Positions 37,473 to 46,658 of a stretch of DNA of 64,000 nt are shown in pieces. Origin of the DNA: an uncultured Nocardioides sp. (GTDB taxonomy: Bacteria; Actinomycetota; Actinomycetes; Propionibacteriales; Nocardioidaceae); NCBI RefSeq assembly GCF_947489365.1, contig NZ_CANLDB010000006.1, positions 124,001 to 188,000 of the forward strand. Reading direction: 5' to 3'. The position numbers were made by a program, and so were the translations under genes. The notes under the pieces are model-generated. The model was not told the DNA's origin, did no database searches, and saw nothing but the letters and a program-made list of their open reading frames with translations. Position 1 is the stretch's first letter. Every line of letters begins with the position of its first letter.

Positions 37473-37717
37473 GTGCGTGCTTGCATGACTGCGTCGAGCC
37501 GTTGCGAAGCGGTCCGTGCGGCACGTCCACATGTGGGCCCGTCCTGTGTCTGGCAGTGGTGTCGAGTTCCGGTCCCCGACGACGATCGAGACTCGATCGA
37601 TGCGAGCGGATCTTATGCGCGTCCCGCGAACCACGTGGCCGGCGTGGCCGTCGGCAGAGTGACCTACGCGCTCGCCACCGGGTTGCACCCCCGTCTGACG
37701 ACGAAGGCCCCTGGCCC

Positions 37718-37781
37718 GCATCGCTGCAGGTCAGGGGCCTTTCGTGGAGCCGCCTGTCGGAATCGAACCGACGACCTTCTC
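37718..37781. repeat. attL-like 64-bp direct repeat (partial tRNA-Thr)
   Basis: Identical to 46556-46619. On the minus strand it contains the 3' half of tRNA-Thr from the anticodon-stem 3' arm through the T-arm, acceptor arm and CCA, plus the start of the downstream hairpin. Beyond the identity the match decays: two mismatches in the anticodon loop region, then ACGAGTG shared. Outside, the matching hairpin arm at 37706-37717 has two mismatches against the right copy. This is the expected relic of integration at a tRNA 3' end. Confidence 0.9.
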
Positions 37782-37919
37782 GTAACGAGTGCCCGCAAAC
37801 GCCAGCAAGCCCAGCTGCAGCGCTGGCGCCCGACAACCCGGCTGACCTGCGGAAACGCAGACCCGCAGGATCACCATCGGACCCGAGAGTTCCCGCGCCA
37901 TCACCCGGTCTTGCACAGC

Positions 37920-37940
37920 TTCTGACCAGTAACCGACCAC
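37920..37940. repeat. Inner end motif, left copy (TTCTGACCAGTAACCGACCAC)
   Basis: Nineteen of 21 bases match the motif at 46496-46516, in the same orientation, just inside the island at the other end. Here it lies 138 bases inside the left direct repeat. Such sequences next to a core site may be integrase arm-type sites or the remains of an att-flanking segment; this is inference. Confidence 0.55.
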
Positions 37941-38069
37941 GCACGTCGGTCGGTTGCGCATCGCCCGGTTGACAGGATCCGGCCCTGGTACCTCGGGGCT
38001 GAGGCTGCCGGGACGACCCGCTGCATCCCAACATGCTGGGCGCCTCGGTGGTCGTCCGCACGACCCGCG

Positions 38070-38264
38070 TCACGGACGTGCTGGGAGGCTGGGCATGTCG
38101 CCGAGCGCGGTGAGCATCACCAGGCATGCCGTCACGATGACGAAAATGAAGGCGAGCCGGAACGTCGCGCCCCAGCCCTGGAGTACGACCCGGGCGACCA
38201 GAGAGCAGAGAGCGACAACCGAGCTTGATTTAGTCGGCCGTGTGGCCGGGGTCGTTGCTGCCAT
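38070..38264 (-). CDS. Small predicted membrane protein
   Basis: 64 residues if started at the ATG at 38264, with only a weak purine-rich site. The core is one hydrophobic segment (ATFRLAFIFVIVTACLVMLT) preceded by ALCSLVARVVLQGW. Similar small single-span proteins occur next to regulators in actinobacterial islands, with no known function. It is divergent from the HTH gene across a palindrome. Coding status is uncertain. Confidence 0.4.
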   Translation of the reverse strand: MAATTPATRPTKSSSVVALCSLVARVVLQGWGATFRLAFIFVIVTACLVMLTALGDMPSLPARP

Positions 38265-38297
38265 CTCTCTAGCGTGACTCGATAGCCTGCCCGTCAA

Positions 38298-38316
38298 TGT
38301 CAACGATCTGTTGACA
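38298..38316. promoter_or_regulatory. Perfect palindrome, candidate operator of the island HTH protein
   Basis: TGTCAAC-GATCT-GTTGACA: perfect 7-base arms with a 5-base spacer. It lies in the gap between the divergent small membrane protein and HTH genes, 24 bases upstream of the HTH start codon. Position and symmetry fit an autoregulatory operator, and each arm end also supplies a TTGACA-like element. Confidence 0.55.
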
Positions 38317-38339
38317 CCGACGCAAGTGGGGAGTGCTAC

Positions 38340-38801
38340 ATGCCGACGATCGAAAACGAGCTTCACAACGCTCTAGTGGCGCGGGCTGCGGACCTGCTCT
38401 CAGCTGCGACGACCTGTCTCGCGCTGGCCGACATGCCCATCGAGGGGCATCCGTCTTTTCAACTCGTAAGGATTCGGCAGGCGATCCATGAGCTCGAGTC
38501 GGCCGAGGCGTTGACGGCGACCTTGTTCGTTCGCGCCGGGGCTTCTTGGGACAGCCTGGCGACGCGGTTCGAGCTGTCTCGACAGGCACTTCATCGACGT
38601 TTGGCGGCTCGGGGGGAAGGTCAGTACGGCATGGCGCAGGAGTACAGCGATCTTCGTCAGAGCGACCTCGACGAGGGTTGCCGCCTCGTTGAGGTCTTGG
38701 CCAGTGACATCGGGTCCGAGCTTTCCGATGCCCTCTCTGAGCGCGCCAACGAACTCGCCGAACTCCGCCGCATCCCGCACTGGTGGCGTAGTGGGGAATA
38801 G
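38340..38801 (+). CDS. HTH-domain protein of the island, probable regulator
   Basis: 153 residues from an ATG with GGGGAG at good distance. Residues 1-65 are helical and may mediate dimerisation. Residues about 67-95 contain a helix-turn-helix (ASWDSLATRFELSRQALHRR). The C-terminal 55 residues are acidic and helical (LVEVLASDIGSELSDALSE). No named family, but the HTH type is widespread in actinobacteria. The palindrome at 38298-38316 is its likely target. It may control the divergent membrane protein and perhaps the defence genes downstream. Confidence 0.72.
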   Translation: MPTIENELHNALVARAADLLSAATTCLALADMPIEGHPSFQLVRIRQAIHELESAEALTATLFVRAGASWDSLATRFELSRQALHRRLAARGEGQYGMAQEYSDLRQSDLDEGCRLVEVLASDIGSELSDALSERANELAELRRIPHWWRSGE

Positions 38802-39393
38802 CGGCGTATGGCTTCCTGGTGCCAGGTGTCGCCAAGAATGGATCGACGCGTGGCGACTCAACTCTCGACGGGCGTCAATCCGCTGCTTTTTCGCCCACTG
38901 CCGCCGGCGTCTCGAACCCGTTGGCTGGCGAATGAAGCCCTCGGGCTCAGACTCGTACTCGTGGCCAGCTTTGACGAGGTCTAGGCGCGCATCGAGCAGC
39001 ATGCCGGAGCGGTTAAAGACTTCCACGAGATCCGCATATTGAGTGCCCGGCTGCCACCTCAAAGTCGCACGCGACGGCCGCGAGATCCACCGTTCGCTGA
39101 TCAACGTCGGCTTGTCGGTCCCTCCAGCTTGCGCCTCTTCTTTCAAGGCGAAGCGAGCGGTCGCGTCCGACACCAAGAGGGATCGTGCCATCTGGGCAAA
39201 CTGGTGCCGCCTACGGTGTCGCTCGTCCGATTCGGACCGCAGGCGGAGCCCCAATCTCTACCCAAGGCAGGCCAGCCTCCAGAGACTAACCGACGGTGCG
39301 TGACAAGGTGGTCTGGCTGACGGTCGAGCAGAAGGACGGACAGACGTCACCAAGCAGAACCGCCTCACGACCGCCGCAGGGGGTGTACCACCG
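38802..39393. other. Region between HTH and SIR2 genes; possible minus-strand gene or relic
   Basis: About 590 bases without a confident gene. A minus-strand frame starting at 39254 is protein-like for about 140 residues (for example LLVSDATARFALKEEAQAGG and YADLVEVFNRSGMLLDARLD). It then runs on, antisense, through most of the HTH gene to a stop at 38400. An overlap of about 400 bases is implausible, so either the gene lost its stop and is decayed or the resemblance is chance. The last 140 bases hold the SIR2 gene's promoter and its GGGGGTG ribosome site. Confidence 0.35.
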
Positions 39394-41217
39394 ATGCCAA
39401 TCGACGTCATTGACCTTGGGACCTTTGTGCGCCAGTGGGCGGTACAGAGTCCAAAGGTCGGCTGGCTCCTCGGCGCGGGCGCCAGTGCCGCAGCCCGCGT
39501 GCCGACGGCGGACCACATCATGATGGATCTGCTTCTGCGGCTGTACGCCGATGCCCATCAGGTAGTCCGGCAGTCGCTCTCACTCTCTGAAGCACGAGAC
39601 GTCGAGCGCATTCGCGAGTACTACGACGGCCGCAATGGGATGCCTGCACTGGACGATCCTGCCTCCTACAGTGTCGCGTTCCAGCTGGCCCTACCCGACC
39701 CAGGCGCCAGAAGACAGCACCTTCGGTCGGTCCTTGAGGGGCGCTCGCCGTCATATGGGCAGCGAATCCTGGGGGCCTTCGTCGCAGCTGGCCTCACTGA
39801 TCTGGTGTTAACCACAAATTTTGATGACCTCATTGAGCGAGCTGTCGAACAGGCACAGGTAGCCCTTGACGACCCATCTCGCAGGCGAATGTTGGTGGCG
39901 GATCTCGGCAATCCCGGCCAAGCGAACCTGGCGTTGAGCGACGACGACTTTCCGTTCCTGTTCAAGTTGCACGGTGACTTCCGCGACCGCGAGTTGAAGA
40001 ACTTGGAGTCAGAGCTGCAGGCGCAAGACGCCAACATGCGTCACGCGGTGCTGGATGCCAGTCGACGATTCGGAGTCGCAGTCATCGGCTACAGCGGCCG
40101 CGACGCCAGCGTCATGGAGATGCTCACGGAAGCGGTCCGCACAGAAGGCGCGTTCCCCGCCGGGCTCTGGTGGATGGGACGTCGAGCCACCTCGATGCTC
40201 AACTCGGTGAAGCACCTGTTCGACGAGTGCGCGGCGAACGGGGTCTCGGCCTACTACGTGTTGATCGAGACCTTCGACGAAACGATGGCCGCACTCGGTC
40301 GCCAGGCCGAGCTGCCTGACAGCCTCCGCAGCTACGTCGACAACCTTCAGGCGCGGCCGAGAGTCACCAACGGCGGGCTGCCACAGCGCGACCGAGGCTC
40401 CCTACCAGCACTCCGGATGAACGCCCTGCCAGTGCTGGATGCGCCGACCCGGGCCATTCGCGCCATCTTGACCGCCACACCGGATCGCGCAGAAACACGC
40501 GAGGCTCTCCACGAGGCCTCCTGGCGAGGTGCGGCTGTCACGTCTGGCCGTCAGGTGCTGGCCCTGGGGAGTCCCGGAGTTCTTAGGAAGGCGCTCGCCA
40601 TTGAGGGGCGTATCGAACAATGCGACATAGATCCGCTCGCCGAGACTGCCACAACAATCGAACGAGCGCTCGTCTACGAAGCTCTCGCCCGCGGCCTTGC
40701 GCGTGGCCTGCCGGTCCAAGCCAGGATCCGCGACTCCGGTCACCGCCTCATAGTCAATACGACCAGAAACGACGCACCGGAGTCGGAAAGGAAAGGCCCT
40801 GCGCGAGCCCTTCTCGCGCGGGCGTACGGAGACCCACTGACCGGCCAGTGCCCGGCAAATCTGGGACGTGGCGCCGACGGGAGGCCTCGACGGTTCGCAG
40901 AATCGGTCGAGCTCGCGCTCGAGTGGCGCCTCGGCGCTTTGTGGCTTCTGTTCATACCTCGCACCTGGGTGTCAGCCCTGCCACCAGCTGATCGCCAGCG
41001 CGGTTCAGGTGATCCCGCGTCGGCTTGGCGCAAGGAGCGCTGGGTAGATCGCCGAAACGAGAAGTGGGCGGCGATCATTGATGCCTGGGCAAAGGTGCTC
41101 GCGCCGGTTGAACGAACTGAGGTTTCCGTTCTGCCTTCCGGCCTCACCGACCGTGATCTGGTCGGTGGCCGCTTCATTTTGGGCAAGACGACTGCCTATA
41201 GCCGGGAGGCCCAATGA
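39394..41217 (+). CDS. SIR2-APAZ effector subunit of a short-Argonaute (SPARSA-type) defence system
   Basis: 607 residues. The N-terminal SIR2-like NAD-consuming domain (about 1-310) shows GWLLGAGASAAARVPTAD (GAGAS, residues 27-31), LTTNFDDLIERA with N142, FLFKLHGDF with H193 and VAVIGYSGRD (230-237). From about 345 to the end is an APAZ region, ending ERTEVSVLPSGLTDRDLVGG and GKTTAYSR. In known SIR2-APAZ/short-pAgo systems the two proteins form a complex. Guide-directed recognition of invader DNA activates SIR2, NAD+ is depleted and the infected cell dies or stops growing. Asn and His of the NADase site are both intact, so the effector is predicted active. The next gene starts inside its stop codon (ATGA). 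Confidence 0.93.
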   Translation: MPIDVIDLGTFVRQWAVQSPKVGWLLGAGASAAARVPTADHIMMDLLLRLYADAHQVVRQSLSLSEARDVERIREYYDGRNGMPALDDPASYSVAFQLALPDPGARRQHLRSVLEGRSPSYGQRILGAFVAAGLTDLVLTTNFDDLIERAVEQAQVALDDPSRRRMLVADLGNPGQANLALSDDDFPFLFKLHGDFRDRELKNLESELQAQDANMRHAVLDASRRFGVAVIGYSGRDASVMEMLTEAVRTEGAFPAGLWWMGRRATSMLNSVKHLFDECAANGVSAYYVLIETFDETMAALGRQAELPDSLRSYVDNLQARPRVTNGGLPQRDRGSLPALRMNALPVLDAPTRAIRAILTATPDRAETREALHEASWRGAAVTSGRQVLALGSPGVLRKALAIEGRIEQCDIDPLAETATTIERALVYEALARGLARGLPVQARIRDSGHRLIVNTTRNDAPESERKGPARALLARAYGDPLTGQCPANLGRGADGRPRRFAESVELALEWRLGALWLLFIPRTWVSALPPADRQRGSGDPASAWRKERWVDRRNEKWAAIIDAWAKVLAPVERTEVSVLPSGLTDRDLVGGRFILGKTTAYSREAQ

Positions 41218-42626
41218 GCGCGCAGGTAGTCGACGCCCGACTTCCACCTCATCGGTTGCTTGACGAGCCACTCCTGTCGTTCGGCAACGAAGGAGGTGAC
41301 AAGCATCCGCTCCGCGGACTTCGAGCCCATGGTCCTTACAGTCGCGACTCGTTTGGCTCGGCGGAGATCCGCTTTGCGCTCATCTCGACCACCAAACTGT
41401 ATCCGAGGGCTCGCCAGTTCCTTGGTTCGCTACTCCAGGAACACCAGCCGACGGATAGACGGAAGTACGTTCCGCCCTACCCGGGCTTTCGTGCGATCTA
41501 CGGCGTCGAACTCAGCCCAGCCGAGGATTCGGTAGTCCAGCTGGATCCAGCGCTCGTCAATGCTCCCGATCCTCATCACGCGATCGCCTCTGCCTTGGCC
41601 CAGGCGGTTCGCCAGCTGACGGTGACACGGTCCAGGTGGGACGTCCTCGTCGTGGCTCTGCCAGCGAGTTGGCGACAGTGGAAGATCTCCACTGATGGCG
41701 CTTTCGATCTGCACGACCAACTGAAGGCCTTCGCCGCTCCCCTTGGCCTGCCGACACAGGTCCTTTGGGAGGACCGTGCAATCAACTTTAGGCACATTTG
41801 CAGCCTCAGCTGGCGCTTGTCGATGGCTTTCTACGCGAAGGCCGGTGGCACTCCGTGGCGCCTCCACCGAGCCAGCGACGCCGACGTCGCTTTCGTCGGG
41901 CTCTCGTACGCAATCCGGGGAGGTACGAAGGACGCCTTCGTAACCTGTTGCTCACAGGTGTTCGACGCCGATGGCGGCGGGATGGATTTCGTTGCCTACG
42001 ACGTGGGGCAAGGCTTCGACCTCGAAAATCCGCATCTGACGCGAGATCAGATGCGGGCCGTCATGAGTCGCAGCGTCCGCCTCTACCAGGACCGCCACGC
42101 CGGCAACCTCCCAAGCAGGATCGTCGTCCATAAGACGACCGGGTTCCGCGACGGAGAGGTGGATGGCGTCTTCGATGCCTGGGGTGCCTGCGACGAGGTC
42201 GAGTGCGTCAGGGTGCAGACCAGCACACCATGGCGAGGCGTTCGGCTCGTTGCGGCTAGGCCCGGGCAAGGCCCCAGCCAGCCGGCCAACTGGCCAGTTC
42301 AACGTGGCACGCTGCAGTTTCTATCGGGACGCGACGGCCTGCTCTACGTCAACGGCACCGCCCCGGGACTTGCGTCCGGGAACAACAACTTCTACCAGGG
42401 CGCCAAGAGCATCCCCAGCCCGCTCCTGGTCACTCGGGACGCTGGTGCCGGTCCACTTGAACGCACCGCCCACGACGTGCTCGCGCTCACCAAGATGGAC
42501 TGGAACAACGACGCCCTTTATGACCCAGTACCGGTGACGATCCGGTACTCGCAGACGCTCGCACGGGTCATCGGGCACACCAGCGGGCTCCCCGACGCCG
42601 CATACCCCTATCGGCTGTTCATGTAG
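41214..42626 (+). CDS. Short prokaryotic Argonaute (MID-PIWI), catalytically inactive
   Basis: 470 residues, the size of short pAgos that lack N and PAZ domains. MID spans about 100-215, with the guide 5'-end pocket region LPTQVLWEDRAINF and the conserved junction AFYAKAGGTPWRL. PIWI spans about 215-470, with VAFVGLSYAIRGG, RIVVHKTTGFRDGEV and LTKMDWNNDALYDPVPVTIR near the C-terminus. The first catalytic Asp is replaced (S231 in FVGLSY) and the third too (T308 in VHKTTG). It should bind guide and target without slicing, as is usual for short pAgos. The ATG overlaps the SIR2-APAZ stop, and GGGAGG lies upstream inside that gene, ensuring balanced synthesis of the two subunits. Confidence 0.94.
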   Translation: MSAQVVDARLPPHRLLDEPLLSFGNEGGDKHPLRGLRAHGPYSRDSFGSAEIRFALISTTKLYPRARQFLGSLLQEHQPTDRRKYVPPYPGFRAIYGVELSPAEDSVVQLDPALVNAPDPHHAIASALAQAVRQLTVTRSRWDVLVVALPASWRQWKISTDGAFDLHDQLKAFAAPLGLPTQVLWEDRAINFRHICSLSWRLSMAFYAKAGGTPWRLHRASDADVAFVGLSYAIRGGTKDAFVTCCSQVFDADGGGMDFVAYDVGQGFDLENPHLTRDQMRAVMSRSVRLYQDRHAGNLPSRIVVHKTTGFRDGEVDGVFDAWGACDEVECVRVQTSTPWRGVRLVAARPGQGPSQPANWPVQRGTLQFLSGRDGLLYVNGTAPGLASGNNNFYQGAKSIPSPLLVTRDAGAGPLERTAHDVLALTKMDWNNDALYDPVPVTIRYSQTLARVIGHTSGLPDAAYPYRLFM

Positions 42627-42653
42627 GCGTGGCAGGACGACGGCTGTACGGCG

Positions 42654-45155
42654 CTAACGATCCTGGAGGGGACCCGACGTGAAGCGACTCGAGAACTGGC
42701 TTGGCGTCAGACCCAAGGTTGAGAGCAGACGTCCAACGCCAGAAGCGTCGCGGAAGGTGTCAGCGTCCGCAAGCGCGGTCGAATAGGTACGGAGCGCATC
42801 TCGGAGAGCCTCCAGCTTCTCCTTCGTCACCACACGGCAGCCGGATGGCACCGCTGCCTTCTTGTCGAACATCGCCCGGGCATGGATCAGCACTGGAACG
42901 GCGGAGGCTTGGGCGCCGTAGGTCTGACGGAACCAGTCCATGGCGTTGGAGAGCTGTTCGGCGTGCTTCTTGTAGACGGGGTGGGTCTCCTTGACTTCGT
43001 TCTTCGCCTCGATGACGTGGAAGCTGCCGTCAGTCAGTGCCCATAGGTCGTCCGGACCGCGGCCCGTGTCGCGCTCCGGACGCTGTCCGGCGAAGCCCAA
43101 GAGGTCGGCGAGCTCTTTCCAGGCTTGCTCGAAGGCATCAGCGCGAGCACCAAAGTTGAGATCACCTATCAAGGCGTTGAACCCGATAAGGAGATCGTTC
43201 CCTGACCCAAACTTGCGCTGGAGTGTCGCCGAGGCAGCGGCGCCCTGTTCCAACGTCGGCGCCGAGAGCTTCTCGTACTCCACACCTTCCATCGGGCGAA
43301 GCACATTACGATTGCTCCGGTTCGCAGACTTCTGGGTTTGCTGAGCCTGCGCCGGGTTCACGTGGTGCTGGTACGCGGCGTACTGCTGAAGCAGAAACCC
43401 CTTCTCGGCCGCCCCCAGAGCACTGTCGATCGCGCGCTGTAGGGCCGCCAAGGCGTCTCCGTAGTCACCTGCGGCGGCGTGGTCGAAGGCCTCCCGACTG
43501 GCGACCGAAATGTCACTGACGTTCGCGCTGCCGTAGCGAAGTGGCGCGAGCTTGGCCCGACTGACCGCTAGCCAATCCGGGTCACGACTCAAGCACTGAA
43601 GTGCAGCCCCACGCAGCGACTCAAGCCCCGTGCCCTCGAGTTGGGTGGCCACCTGCTCAGACAACTCAATCTGAGCCAAAGTCGCAGGCGAGAAGCAGGC
43701 CCGAGCGCTGGCCCCGTAAAGACGCTCCGCCAGACGGTTGCCGAGGAGAATCACCACGCAGTGATCATCATTCGAACGCGTTGCCCGTCCCATGCCCTGT
43801 TCCAGGCGCTGCACCTGTCGGGCGATGAGCAGCTCCGACCCCGCAAGCTGTGCCTGGTCGATCCTTTCGGTTCCGGACATCGCCTCGGGCAGGCCATCGA
43901 CCACCAACACGTGGCAAGCGTCGCCAGGCAGGTCGACACCGTCGTACCGATTGACCAGCACCACCAGACCGAACTTGGGGTTCCGGCGCAACTGGTCGAC
44001 TCCCCGGGCAAGATTGTCCTTATCCAGCACGGCCGCCGCGTATGGCTGCCAGAACGCGGCCCGTCGGAGGCTCGGCACGATCACGACAACGTTGCGATCA
44101 GCTGCTAGACCGACCACGAGATCGCGGAGCTCGTCCTCCGCCGCTTGGGGGTGCGTCTGCTGCGGCACCAGGATGAGACGATCGCCGATGTCGCCAGCGC
44201 TGGCGGGCGTGATCGGGTTAGCAACCGCATCGGGATCGGCCCCAAGGTCGCTCACCAAGACCCCGTCGTCAGCCAACGTGGCCGTCAGATAGATGCGGCG
44301 CTCCGCCTGGCTGAAGCCAGTGACTACACCTGACGGCAGACAGGGCGCCTCAATCTCCAACGCCTCCCCCGAGAACACGGCCCGACAGATAGGGAGAGCG
44401 TCTGCCAGCAGCGGCCACGCAAACTGGAAGTCGTCCTCGCTCGCGAGTGGCTGAAGCAGCGCAAGAACCTCTCGCTGCTTCTCGACCCACGCCCAGTAGG
44501 GCACTTGCAGGATGCCGCTGCTCGACTTGGCGAGGAGTGAGACGAATCCAGCGGGCGACTGGTCTTCGAGCGTCGGAGCGAAGATCCCCAGCACCTTGTC
44601 GTAGACGTCGTGCGCACCCGGGATAGACAAGCGAAATGCTTGCTCTGCTTTGTTCAGGCAAGCGTGCGCGTCATCAACAATGACGGTATGTGGACGACTG
44701 GCGGACGGTGTCCGACCAACGCTGCCACCCACGCCGAAGACTGACCGGCCGTTGAACAACTTCTGGAAGGTGTCGACAAGGATCGCCTTGCCCTGCGAGT
44801 AGGCGAACAGCTTCGGATCGGTGACGACCGGGATGCCGAGGCGGTTGGCCTCTGCGACAACCTGCTCGACGAGGTACTTGTCTGGGACGAGGTAGGCGAC
44901 CGGGCCCTTGCGCTCGGCGAGGGAGCTCTTGGCGATCAGCAAACCGACAACCGTCTTGCCACCACCAGTGTTCAGCTTGAGAATGACGTCCCGCTGATCC
45001 CGTCGCGCGAACCATTTCTCCAGCACTTGATCCTGGGGGCCGCGCAAGAAGTTCATTCCCGCGGGCTTGGCCGGAAGCGAGTTGAAGATGTCGCGCGGGT
45101 CGATCAGGCCATCGGCGTTGGCCGTCGTGTTGATAGCCCCGAAGTTGATGGCCAC
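42654..45155 (-). CDS. Rad3/XPD-like SF2 helicase fused to a PD-(D/E)XK nuclease domain
   Basis: 833 residues. Helicase motifs: Walker A LNTGGGKTVVGLL (63-68), DEAH-type VIVDDAHACL (161-164), TATL (291-294) and motif VI EQGMGRATRSNDDH (453-460). The TATL and QGMGRATR forms resemble DinG/XPD helicases, but no four-Cys iron-sulfur cluster set is seen. After a helical linker (about 540-660) comes a nuclease-like domain: GRGPDDLWAL (D at 702-703), then FHVIEAKNEV (E716, K718), the D...ExK core of restriction-type nucleases. It converges with the Argonaute gene (27 bases between stops), so it has its own promoter. It may be a separate defence protein or an accessory. Confidence 0.88.
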   Translation of the reverse strand: MAINFGAINTTANADGLIDPRDIFNSLPAKPAGMNFLRGPQDQVLEKWFARRDQRDVILKLNTGGGKTVVGLLIAKSSLAERKGPVAYLVPDKYLVEQVVAEANRLGIPVVTDPKLFAYSQGKAILVDTFQKLFNGRSVFGVGGSVGRTPSASRPHTVIVDDAHACLNKAEQAFRLSIPGAHDVYDKVLGIFAPTLEDQSPAGFVSLLAKSSSGILQVPYWAWVEKQREVLALLQPLASEDDFQFAWPLLADALPICRAVFSGEALEIEAPCLPSGVVTGFSQAERRIYLTATLADDGVLVSDLGADPDAVANPITPASAGDIGDRLILVPQQTHPQAAEDELRDLVVGLAADRNVVVIVPSLRRAAFWQPYAAAVLDKDNLARGVDQLRRNPKFGLVVLVNRYDGVDLPGDACHVLVVDGLPEAMSGTERIDQAQLAGSELLIARQVQRLEQGMGRATRSNDDHCVVILLGNRLAERLYGASARACFSPATLAQIELSEQVATQLEGTGLESLRGAALQCLSRDPDWLAVSRAKLAPLRYGSANVSDISVASREAFDHAAAGDYGDALAALQRAIDSALGAAEKGFLLQQYAAYQHHVNPAQAQQTQKSANRSNRNVLRPMEGVEYEKLSAPTLEQGAAASATLQRKFGSGNDLLIGFNALIGDLNFGARADAFEQAWKELADLLGFAGQRPERDTGRGPDDLWALTDGSFHVIEAKNEVKETHPVYKKHAEQLSNAMDWFRQTYGAQASAVPVLIHARAMFDKKAAVPSGCRVVTKEKLEALRDALRTYSTALADADTFRDASGVGRLLSTLGLTPSQFSSRFTSGPLQDR

Positions 45156-45547
45156 GTCTACCTACCTCTATCTGTCTCCTGCCAGCATGCCCCGAAGCGC
45201 GGCGGAGTCGCCACTCCGTTTGCAACTCCGTCACCGGGCGTCTCCGTAGATCGCCGCGCAGTGCCTTCCATGGCGGATCGTCGAGCAAGTTCCGGCAAGA
45301 TCGACTCTCCGAAACCAGCAGTCTCCGTCGCCCCTAAGGTGGTCGCGCATCTGCCGAATGGTCCGTATCCTCGCGGTCGTCACCGAAGGTGGCGTCGTGT
45401 CGTCCGGGAGCCCGATCTGGACGACGGTGGCGAGAAAGCCAAGCGGGCCACCCTGGGGCGGCCGCCCGTTCATCCACGGGAAGCTGGCCCAAGCTTGGCG
45501 CTCACGGTGTCGTCTCGACGGCGGCTAACACGTTGTCAGCCGGCGCG
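45156..45547. other. Island stretch with no recognised gene
   Basis: About 390 bases between the start of the helicase gene and the end of the chimeric ORF. An 80-residue minus-strand frame (45231-45473) has no domain or clear ribosome site. The first 60 bases are the likely helicase promoter/leader. The composition is island-like. Confidence 0.45.
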
Positions 45548-46354
45548 TCAGGCACTGCACGCTTCGTGATGACCCACCGATCCGATCCGGGTGTGGGCGC
45601 GAGTGATGCGCGCGCTGATCAACGGCAGATACGCCGCTTCGCGTTCGAAGGCGACGTAGTACCTGTTCTCCATGATCGCGGCCTCGACCGTGGTCCCGGA
45701 TCCAGCGAAAGGTTCGAGGAGGCTGCCTTCATTCGGCACGTAGAGCCGAACGAGTTCGCGAGCCAGGGCCAGCGGCTTCACCGTCGGGTGCGAGAGACCG
45801 GACTGGAGATGCCGCTCCTCCCTGCCCGCCTTCGGATAGTCGAACACCGTAGTCGGCCAGCGCCGTGGTGACCCGCTCCAGCGCGAGAAGGCACTGACGT
45901 TGATGAAGCCGGTTCCCCACCGGTCGAGTTTGACCGCGAAGGTGCTGTCGGGGCGCTTCTGCGCGCACACGATCGGCTCGTGAGCGGGACAGGTCGTCGT
46001 GGAGAGGACGCGCCCGTCGGGCAGGACCTGCTTGAGTCCGCGGGAGGCGCTGCCACGTCGGACCCACGTCAGTTGGTCCCGGATCACGAGGTCGGCCTGT
46101 CGTGCGGCGTAGCCAACGAAGGAGCGCGCACCCCAGGCCCGGACGTCAAGGGTGTCGACGACTTCGACTTGATCGGCGGTGAAGAACGCCCAGCGCTCCG
46201 CTTCACTATCGAGGTCGGCATCCGGGACGAGCCGGACTGCGAAGTCAATGTCTGACCACTCGTCCTGATCGCCGCGAGCAGCCGAGCCGAGCAGTGCGGC
46301 CGAAGCACATGCTGGATCCCTGCGCGCTTGGCCGATGAGGCCGCTGCAAGACAC
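45548..46354 (-). CDS. Chimeric ORF: nucleotidyltransferase N-terminus joined to C-terminal half of a DNA methyltransferase
   Basis: About 268 residues from a GTG at 46354 with AAGGTCCGAG upstream; the frame stays open up into the tRNA gene. The first part is an MNT-type nucleotidyltransferase: ALLGSAARGDQDEWSDIDFA holds the GSxARG and DxD metal motifs. From about residue 90 on it is an N4/N6 DNA methyltransferase: TCPAHEPIVCAQK, FDYPKAGREERHLQ, HPTVKPLALARELV and the SAM-binding LLEPFAGSGTTVEAAI. The DPPY catalytic motif, expected upstream of these in this class, is missing. The two halves were probably joined by deletion, and methylation is unlikely. It may be expressed as a fusion or be a relic. 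Confidence 0.72.
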   Translation of the reverse strand: MSCSGLIGQARRDPACASAALLGSAARGDQDEWSDIDFAVRLVPDADLDSEAERWAFFTADQVEVVDTLDVRAWGARSFVGYAARQADLVIRDQLTWVRRGSASRGLKQVLPDGRVLSTTTCPAHEPIVCAQKRPDSTFAVKLDRWGTGFINVSAFSRWSGSPRRWPTTVFDYPKAGREERHLQSGLSHPTVKPLALARELVRLYVPNEGSLLEPFAGSGTTVEAAIMENRYYVAFEREAAYLPLISARITRAHTRIGSVGHHEACSA

Positions 46355-46495
46355 GGTCTCGGACCTTGCTGTTTTGCCCTTGTGCCATCTGCGGCAGGCT
46401 CCCACGCGAATCCGGGTGATCGCCCAGAAGCGGCCCGAGGCACCCAACGCCGCCCACCGGATCGTTGATGCGGTCCTGGAGGCGATCCAGACAAT

Positions 46496-46516
46496 TTCTG
46501 GCCAGTAACTGACCAC
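46496..46516. repeat. Inner end motif, right copy (TTCTGGCCAGTAACTGACCAC)
   Basis: Partner of 37920-37940 (19 of 21 bases, same orientation). It lies about 40 bases inside the right 64-base repeat. Confidence 0.55.
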
Positions 46517-46543
46517 CGGGGCATTGACCACCAGGACGACTGT

Positions 46544-46577
46544 GGCCCCTGACCTGCATCGCTGCAGGTCAGGGGCC
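46544..46577. terminator. Hairpin downstream of tRNA-Thr
   Basis: Perfect 15-base stem (GGCCCCTGACCTGCA / TGCAGGTCAGGGGCC) with a 4-base loop, ending in TTT on the plus strand and flanked by AAA on the minus strand. It follows the tRNA CCA end by 5 bases and is the likely transcription terminator. A copy with two stem mismatches sits at 37706-37739 next to the truncated tRNA. Confidence 0.8.
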
Positions 46578-46619
46578 TTTCGTGGAGCCGCCTGTCGGAA
46601 TCGAACCGACGACCTTCTC
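46556..46619. repeat. attR-like 64-bp direct repeat within tRNA-Thr and its terminator
   Basis: Right-hand copy of the island's terminal repeat, identical to 37718-37781. It overlaps the 3' half of the functional tRNA, so the tRNA gene is kept whole on this side. The core crossover for integration most likely lies in the shared anticodon-to-T-arm stretch. Confidence 0.9.
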
Positions 46620-46658
46620 ATTACGAGTGAGACGCTCTACCGACTGAGCTAAGGCGGC
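46583..46658 (-). tRNA. tRNA-Thr, anticodon CGU
   Basis: 76 bases with the CCA encoded. Acceptor GCCGCCT pairs with AGGCGGC, the D-arm is GCTCAGTCGGTAGAGC, the anticodon loop CTCGTAA gives CGU (reads ACG), and the T-loop is TTCGATT. It reads ACG Thr codons, common in GC-rich genomes. It is the integration target of the island, which lies on its 3' side. Confidence 0.97.

What the first reader, a model, noticed from the sequence alone, without database searches (positions are those of the whole stretch)
42654..45155. Rad3-like helicase fused to a PD-(D/E)XK domain, convergent with the Argonaute gene
An 833-residue protein combines SF2 motifs of the DinG/XPD style (TATL, QGMGRATR) with a C-terminal D-x(n)-ExK nuclease core (PDD 701-703, EAK 716-718). 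Helicase-nuclease fusions are frequent in defence islands. It could be a stand-alone system or could supply guides or process DNA for the Argonaute.
Basis: partly seen in the sequence, partly recalled or inferred. Interest (0 to 1): 0.65.

Follow-up and report, generated by a model that had tools for sequence, protein, structure and literature searches.

The report
Hna defence gene beside an Argonaute
This gene encodes a member of Hna, an already described bacterial antivirus protein that joins a helicase to a DNA-cutting domain; it shares a mobile island with a second known defence system, and is ordinary rather than new.

Summary
[quoted passage not shown] It is not a new fusion: it is a full-length member of Hna (PADLOC PDC-S28), a single-protein abortive-infection system. 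Solved S. meliloti Hna matches almost the whole chain (phmmer 1e-133; fold Z 47.2 over 801 residues, rmsd 2.1). Catalytic D702/E716/K718 and helicase Q41 are invariant in 126 aligned rows. The three published Hna dimer-contact residues are kept neither in the window nor in most of the family. The neighbour is a complete SPARSA pair (Sir2-APAZ + short pAgo). Both lie on an ~8.8-kb, lower-GC island between 95-nt repeats at a tRNA-Thr gene. Hna-SPARSA adjacency occurs in three separate places of the Hna tree but is rare: 3 of 126 Hna loci, and 0 of 18 SPARSA loci reached from the SPARSA side (16 informative). One relative kept hna while its SPARSA decayed. A guide-supply or Argonaute-processing role is not supported. 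Best reading: two independent defence systems on one island.

The parts
42654..45155 (-). hna: 833-aa Hna helicase-nuclease (helicase half about 17-560, helical linker, PD-(D/E)XK nuclease about 670-760)
41214..42626 (+). short pAgo (470 aa) of a SPARSA pair; 27 bp from the end of hna, convergent
   Evidence: pAgo_I 3.2e-177; 8in8_C 4e-95
39394..41217 (+). Sir2-APAZ subunit (607 aa) of SPARSA; by motif N142 (TTNFDD) and H193 (LHGD) stand for the catalytic Asn and His; overlaps the pAgo start by 4 bp
   Evidence: (8in8_B 3e-64)
37697..37791 (+). left end of the island: 95-nt direct repeat holding a copy of the tRNA-Thr 3' end
46535..46629 (+). right end of the island: 95-nt direct repeat (93% identical) overlapping the tRNA-Thr gene
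46583..46658 (-). tRNA-Thr (cgt), the likely integration target
45548..46621 (-). ORF with a nucleotidyltransferase match and an N-terminally incomplete N6/N4 DNA methylase match; its ATG lies inside the tRNA gene, so probably a chimeric remnant; not part of Hna
38340..38801 (+). 153-aa ORF of unknown function upstream of SPARSA, no significant match

Best explanation
The gene is hna, encoding a member of the Hna (helicase-nuclease abortive infection) family. Most likely mechanism, transferred from S. meliloti Hna: the SF2 motor binds ATP and ssDNA but does not unwind, and the ATP-bound state holds the C-terminal PD-(D/E)XK nuclease in check. A phage factor, such as a phage single-stranded DNA-binding protein, releases the check during infection; the protein then degrades DNA from single-stranded 3' ends, and the infected cell stops or dies before progeny appear. 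It works without the neighbouring Argonaute. SPARSA next door is a second, separate system (RNA-guided sensing of DNA, then NAD+ hydrolysis) carried on the same island at tRNA-Thr. Shown here: family membership, fold, intact active-site residues, island, linkage counts. Inferred: every biochemical and cellular step for this particular protein, the SSB trigger above all, and the exact dimer contact, whose residues differ.
For: PADLOC PDC-S28 3.3e-300 over residues 3-827. phmmer match to the PDB chain of 10uj/9yhn/9ykj, E 1.1e-133, query 13-765; PMC13381803 deposits 10UJ as Hna monomer and 9YKJ as Hna dimer. AlphaFold2 model, mean pLDDT 90.7: best match 9yhn 'Hna Monomer', TMq 0.92, rmsd 2.3, and Z 47.2 over 801 residues, rmsd 2.1; the best non-Hna row has Z 17.6. 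Residues that PMC13381803 mutated, in 101 dereplicated rows: D713/E727/K729 = D702/E716/K718, 101 of 101 each; P712 = P701, 95; Q39 = Q41, 101; R36 = R38, 75. Mechanism from PMC13381803 (introduction, results, discussion read).
Against: The dimer-contact residues T30/D31/P34 of S. meliloti Hna are A32/G33/F36 here; T, D and P occur in 8, 6 and 9 of 101 rows, so ATP-dependent inhibition by that contact may not transfer; the alignment beside the loop has a gap. Identity to S. meliloti Hna is about 32%. No activity of this protein has been measured. The founding paper (Sather 2023) is not held and was not read.
Confidence: 0.92

Rival explanations
1. Hna and SPARSA on this island cooperate: SPARSA depletes NAD+ and so ATP, which lifts the ATP-dependent check on Hna, or Hna's DNA degradation feeds targets to SPARSA. 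The tail-to-tail pair would then be a two-stage abortive cassette.
For: Tail-to-tail pairs in the window and in L065/L071, and a divergent pair in L082; the linked Hna stand in three separate places of the tree. In 50 Hna genomes the 3 SPARSA-type pAgo with E up to 1e-40 are the three that lie beside hna. 3 of 50 against 5 of 779 sampled genomes, Fisher p 0.009; p 0.06 if L065 and L071 count once; the background samples differ in taxa from the 50. ATP checks Hna (PMC13381803).
Against: 0 of 18 SPARSA loci reached from the SPARSA side have hna in the held flanks. None of the 4 other genomes with a strong PDC-S28 match (281 bits or more) among 396 of the phylum has a pAgo match at E up to 0.001. 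L060 (93% identical to L065 Hna) and L070 lack SPARSA at the same place; L058 lost SPARSA and kept hna. MkoA (Mokosh) is a direct 3' neighbour of hna about as often as pAgo: 3 against 2 of 72, near-copies not removed. The genes are convergent, so not one operon.
Confidence: 0.07
2. The helicase-nuclease is an accessory of the Argonaute: it makes guides or processes the target.
For: Adjacency in the window; PMC6299218 (passages) reports helicases and nucleases in pAgo operons.
Against: hna alone restores resistance in S. meliloti (PMC12445080, passage). SPARSA was found near 3 of 126 hna and hna near 0 of 18 SPARSA. It is on the opposite strand from the SPARSA genes. S. meliloti Hna does not degrade ssRNA (PMC13381803), while SPARSA uses RNA guides (PMC10781750, passages).
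Confidence: 0.03
3. It is a DinG/XPD-type repair helicase with a housekeeping role rather than a defence protein.
For: DinG and XPD chains match the helicase half.
Against: NCBIfam matches to DinG-type models are far below their cut-offs (best 35 bits against 680), whereas Hna matches almost full length. Another 668-codon frame with a helicase-C match lies elsewhere in the genome (C1:222378), perhaps the housekeeping enzyme (inference). The gene is on an island not found at 7 of 7 congeneric tRNA-Thr sites examined.
Confidence: 0.02

Closest known systems
Hna of Sinorhizobium meliloti (SMa2245; PDB 10UJ, 9YHN, 9YKJ)
   Same: Length, order of domains, full-chain fold, helicase motifs, PD-(D/E)XK residues, helicase Q residue
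   Different: About 32% identity; the dimer-contact residues T30/D31/P34 are not kept; it lies on a tRNA-Thr island next to SPARSA instead of on pSymA
PADLOC candidate PDC-S28
   Same: Full-length match, 3.3e-300
   Different: None seen. That PDC-S28 and Hna are one family follows from the matches, not from a statement read in print
SPARSA (Sir2-APAZ/pAgo, PDB 8IN8)
   Same: The neighbouring gene pair matches both subunits along most of their length; catalytic Asn and His present by motif
   Different: A separate system; the word 'helicase' does not occur in the main text of PMC10781750
DinG / CRISPR type IV DinG / XPD
   Same: Helicase fold and motifs
   Different: Alignments to these chains end near residue 500-545, before the nuclease. 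No cysteine lies between Walker A (63) and DDAH (161), where XPD and DinG hold their iron-sulphur cysteines (recalled)

Membership tests
Hna | Full-length homology to S. meliloti Hna | tested here: met
   phmmer 1.1e-133, query 13-765; Z 47.2 over 801 residues
Hna | SF2 helicase motifs (Walker A, DDAH, TAT, EQGxGR) | tested here: met
   Invariant or nearly so in 126 aligned rows
Hna | C-terminal PD-(D/E)XK with P712/D713/E727/K729 | tested here: met
   P701/D702/E716/K718; helix-strand-strand-strand-helix-strand in the model
Hna | No iron-sulphur cluster (stated for S. meliloti Hna in PMC13381803) | tested here: met
   Cysteines only at 166, 257, 272, 414, 466, 487, 521, 773; that the cluster cysteines of XPD and DinG lie between Walker A and the DEAH motif is recalled
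Hna | HEL1 loop residues T30/D31/P34 of the ATP-stabilised dimer | tested here: not met
   A32/G33/F36 in the window; T 8, D 6, P 9 of 101 rows. Not treated as defining, since most of the family lacks them, though PMC13381803 calls the loop highly conserved
Hna | 3'-5' ssDNA exonuclease, checked by ATP | not testable with these tools
   Needs purified protein
Hna | Activation by a phage SSB; abortive infection | not testable with these tools
   Needs phage challenge
SPARSA-associated accessory protein | Regular linkage to SPARSA | tested here: not met
   3 of 126 Hna loci, 0 of 18 SPARSA loci
DinG/XPD repair helicase | DinG or XPD family match above the curated cut-off | tested here: not met
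   Best NCBIfam 35 bits against a cut-off of 680; rad3 15 against 247
DdmD (helicase-nuclease of the pAgo system DdmDE, recalled) | Homology to DdmD | not tested
   No direct comparison with a DdmD sequence or structure was made

The most novel reading that the evidence does not exclude
Tail-to-tail Hna-SPARSA pairs are a recurrently assembled two-stage abortive cassette: SPARSA's NAD+ depletion lowers ATP, and the fall in ATP lifts the ATP-dependent check on Hna, so that one sensor arms the other system's nuclease. The linkage in three separate places of the Hna tree is consistent with selection for the pair.
Probability: 0.06. Interest if true: 0.6.

Novelty: new member of a known kind. Interest (0 to 1): 0.2.

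Why it matters
Two by-products may be of use to specialists. The dimer-contact residues reported for S. meliloti Hna are not shared by most of the rows aligned here, so how other Hna are kept in check is open. And Hna-SPARSA neighbourhoods stand in three separate places of the Hna tree, which makes a synergy test easy to set up.

Tried and rejected
Rejected: a novel helicase-nuclease fusion; an Argonaute accessory; a DinG repair helicase. Left open: synergy with SPARSA.

Led nowhere: the 153-aa ORF 38340-38801 has no significant Pfam, PADLOC, NCBIfam or plasmid match. One paper in the library holds the word PDC-S28, a Bacillus cereus survey, seen as a listing. No paper seen links Hna with SPARSA; searches: Hna, SPARSA, pAgo, defense island, co-occurrence, DefenseFinder, at least 3 terms; 18 papers; Hna, Argonaute, abortive infection; 3 papers. 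Of those I saw listings only, except the sections of PMC13381803 and passages of PMC13316683. Other papers seen as passages: PMC12445080, PMC10781750, PMC6299218. No DdmD row was noticed among the rows shown, which shows nothing about DdmD.

Mistake and mend: the 'lysR' query was translated out of frame; it was redone in frame, and the synteny statement rests.

Limits of the counts: the 126 loci hold near-copies (101 rows remain under 92% identity, window included), and a number of flanks are shorter than 10 kb. L090 (568 aa) was left out of the alignment, whose 126 rows include the window. One search was itself capped and returned the best 80 of 547 relatives; 50 of those 80 were sent. 72 of 80 loci gave a 3' neighbour by a simple longest-ORF rule, and one search shows 25 of 179 families. 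From the SPARSA side only part of what was found was examined: 4 of 97 plasmid records, and the weaker pAgo of G710 and of G402, G412, G418, G429, G441 were not fetched with flanks; the SPARSA of G413, G416 and G426 were reached through hna and are not in the 18. Of the 18, L162 and L182 end within about 110 bp of the pAgo stop, so 16 are informative for a tail-to-tail neighbour.

Full report
What is there. The ORF 42654-45155(-) encodes 833 residues. Pfam sees DEAD, Helicase_C_2 and ResIII, all in the helicase half, but no nuclease family at the C-terminus. PADLOC sees PDC-S28 over residues 3-827, E 3.3e-300. The PDB sequence search gives one strong hit, the 845-residue chain of 10uj/9yhn/9ykj, E 1.1e-133 over query 13-765; the other five listed have E 0.4 or more.

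What it is. PMC13381803 (introduction, results, discussion read) deposits 10UJ and 9YKJ as the Hna monomer and dimer of S. meliloti. Hna is there a single-effector abortive-infection protein: a 3'-5' ssDNA exonuclease without measurable unwinding, held in an inhibited dimer by ATP and released by a phage SSB. An AlphaFold2 model of the window protein from a 50-row alignment has mean pLDDT 90.7. Foldseek puts 9yhn 'Hna Monomer' first (TMq 0.92, rmsd 2.3). VIA-align gives Z 47.2 over 801 residues at rmsd 2.1; the best non-Hna row, the XPD-type chain of human TFIIH (6nmi_B), has Z 17.6 over 457 residues. The C-terminal secondary structure, helix 672-685, strands 689-691, 703-706 and 712-717, helix 729-746, strand 752-757, is the order that PMC13381803 gives for the Hna nuclease core.

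Conservation. In 126 aligned rows (window included) D702, E716, K718, Q41, G66, K67, D161 and D162 are invariant. Numbered by S. meliloti Hna on 101 rows under 92% identity: D713, E727, K729 and Q39 in 101 of 101, P712 in 95, R36 in 75. Against that, the three residues whose joint mutation broke the inhibited dimer, T30, D31 and P34, are A32, G33 and F36 in the window and are kept in only 8, 6 and 9 of 101. The alignment has a gap near the loop, so single columns are less sure. PMC13381803 calls this loop highly conserved; on this sample it is not. The window's Hna may be checked through another contact.

The neighbour. 39394-41217(+) and 41214-42626(+) are a SPARSA pair: Sir2-APAZ and short pAgo, matching 8in8_B (3e-64) and 8in8_C (4e-95). 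The catalytic Asn and His of SPARSA (N142 and H186 in PMC10781750, passages) are N142 and H193 here by motif. 27 bp separate the pAgo and hna genes.

The island. A 95-nt direct repeat at 37697-37791 recurs at 46535-46629 with 93% identity; the right copy overlaps tRNA-Thr(cgt) 46583-46658. GC is 0.62-0.66 in the 1-kb windows between 38000 and 46499 and 0.68-0.76 in the flanks. In seven congeneric genomes with the same tRNA-Thr and LysR neighbour (of 12 congeners searched) neither hna nor SPARSA is in the 15-17 kb fetched (0 of 7); five have a single tRNA copy there and two (G832, G836) a second partial copy 2.4-3.7 kb away, as other insertions would leave. The left neighbour, a GH10 enzyme, was not found in those seven stretches. 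No integrase was recognised among the island ORFs tested, and the ORF 45548-46621 looks like a chimeric remnant.

Is Hna tied to Argonaute? From the Hna side: of 126 loci that hold hna, SPARSA lies in the held flanks of 3 (L065, L071, L082), and a decayed pAgo tail lies beside hna in L058. L065 and L071 are tail to tail, as in the window; L082 is divergent, with the Sir2 and pAgo matches in one ORF of 1068 aa. On the Hna tree (101 rows, FastTree) the label 'linked' (window, L071, L058, L082; L065 dropped as a near-copy) needs three changes, and starred branches force three; 21 of 500 shuffles needed as few. Three separate gains are the simplest account, but losses are not excluded. Of 50 Hna genomes, 10 have some pAgo match at E up to 0.001 and 3 at E up to 1e-40, and these 3 are the same adjacent cases. 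In the sample of the window's phylum 4 of 395 other genomes, and in the class of L065's genome 1 of 384 others, reach that level; 3 of 50 against 5 of 779 gives p 0.009, or 0.06 with L065 and L071 counted once, with the caution that the samples differ in taxa. Of 396 genomes of the phylum, 5 have a strong PDC-S28 match (281 bits or more; the rest of the 95 matches are at 33 bits or less), and of the 4 besides the window's none has a pAgo match.

From the SPARSA side: 18 loci from plasmids, viral contigs and genomes have no hna in the held flanks, 0 of 18 with six different Hna queries at E up to 1e-10, 16 of them with at least 1 kb beyond the pAgo stop. Linkage is also labile: L060 and L070, close Hna relatives, lack SPARSA, and L058 keeps hna and about 270 bp of pAgo tail, 85% identical to L065, with a stop inside. 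Among 72 direct 3' neighbours of hna, the 25 families shown of 179 include MkoA of Mokosh in 3, pAgo_I in 2, PD-T4-6 in 2, PDC-S37 in 2 and mad8 in 5 (best E 9.4e-13); resolvase domains are in 3 and phage integrase in 2 (25 of 81 families shown). hna thus sits among varied defence and mobility genes, and SPARSA is one of them.

Conclusion. This is a new member of a known family, sharing a mobile island with a second known system. The Argonaute-accessory reading is not supported; synergy between the two is possible, untested and unlikely on the counts. The point of most interest for follow-up is the missing conservation of the published dimer contact.

Noticed in passing
window 37697-46629: Defence island of about 8.8 kb flanked by 95-nt repeats at tRNA-Thr; two congeneric genomes (G832, G836) show a second partial copy of the same tRNA nearby, as other insertions would leave.
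   Followed up: partly
window 42654-45155, residues 32-36 of the protein: The Hna dimer-contact residues T30/D31/P34, in a loop called highly conserved in the 2026 paper, are kept in only 8, 6 and 9 of 101 rows.
   Followed up: yes
L058:12494-12676; L180:9914-10045; L201:9780-10007: Three separate loci match only the last 44-76 residues of a SPARSA-type pAgo; in L058 the piece abuts hna. Why the tail survives is not known.
   Followed up: partly
L039:9953-12463 (pTi of Agrobacterium fabrum C58 GV3101): The Ti plasmid of a common laboratory strain carries an Hna homologue (about 31% identical), 2.5 kb from repC.
   Followed up: no
L123-L155: 33 contigs of the viral collection encode Hna relatives, so Hna may travel on prophages or phage-like elements.
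   Followed up: no
L040:9863-12484: A Salmonella record carries an Hna homologue among genes annotated as integrating conjugative element, about 9 kb from dnd genes.
   Followed up: no
L082:6612-9818: A 1068-aa ORF holds both the Sir2 and the pAgo matches in one chain, divergent from hna.
   Followed up: no
window 45548-46621: ORF joining a nucleotidyltransferase-like part to an N-terminally incomplete DNA methylase; its ATG lies in the tRNA gene.
   Followed up: partly
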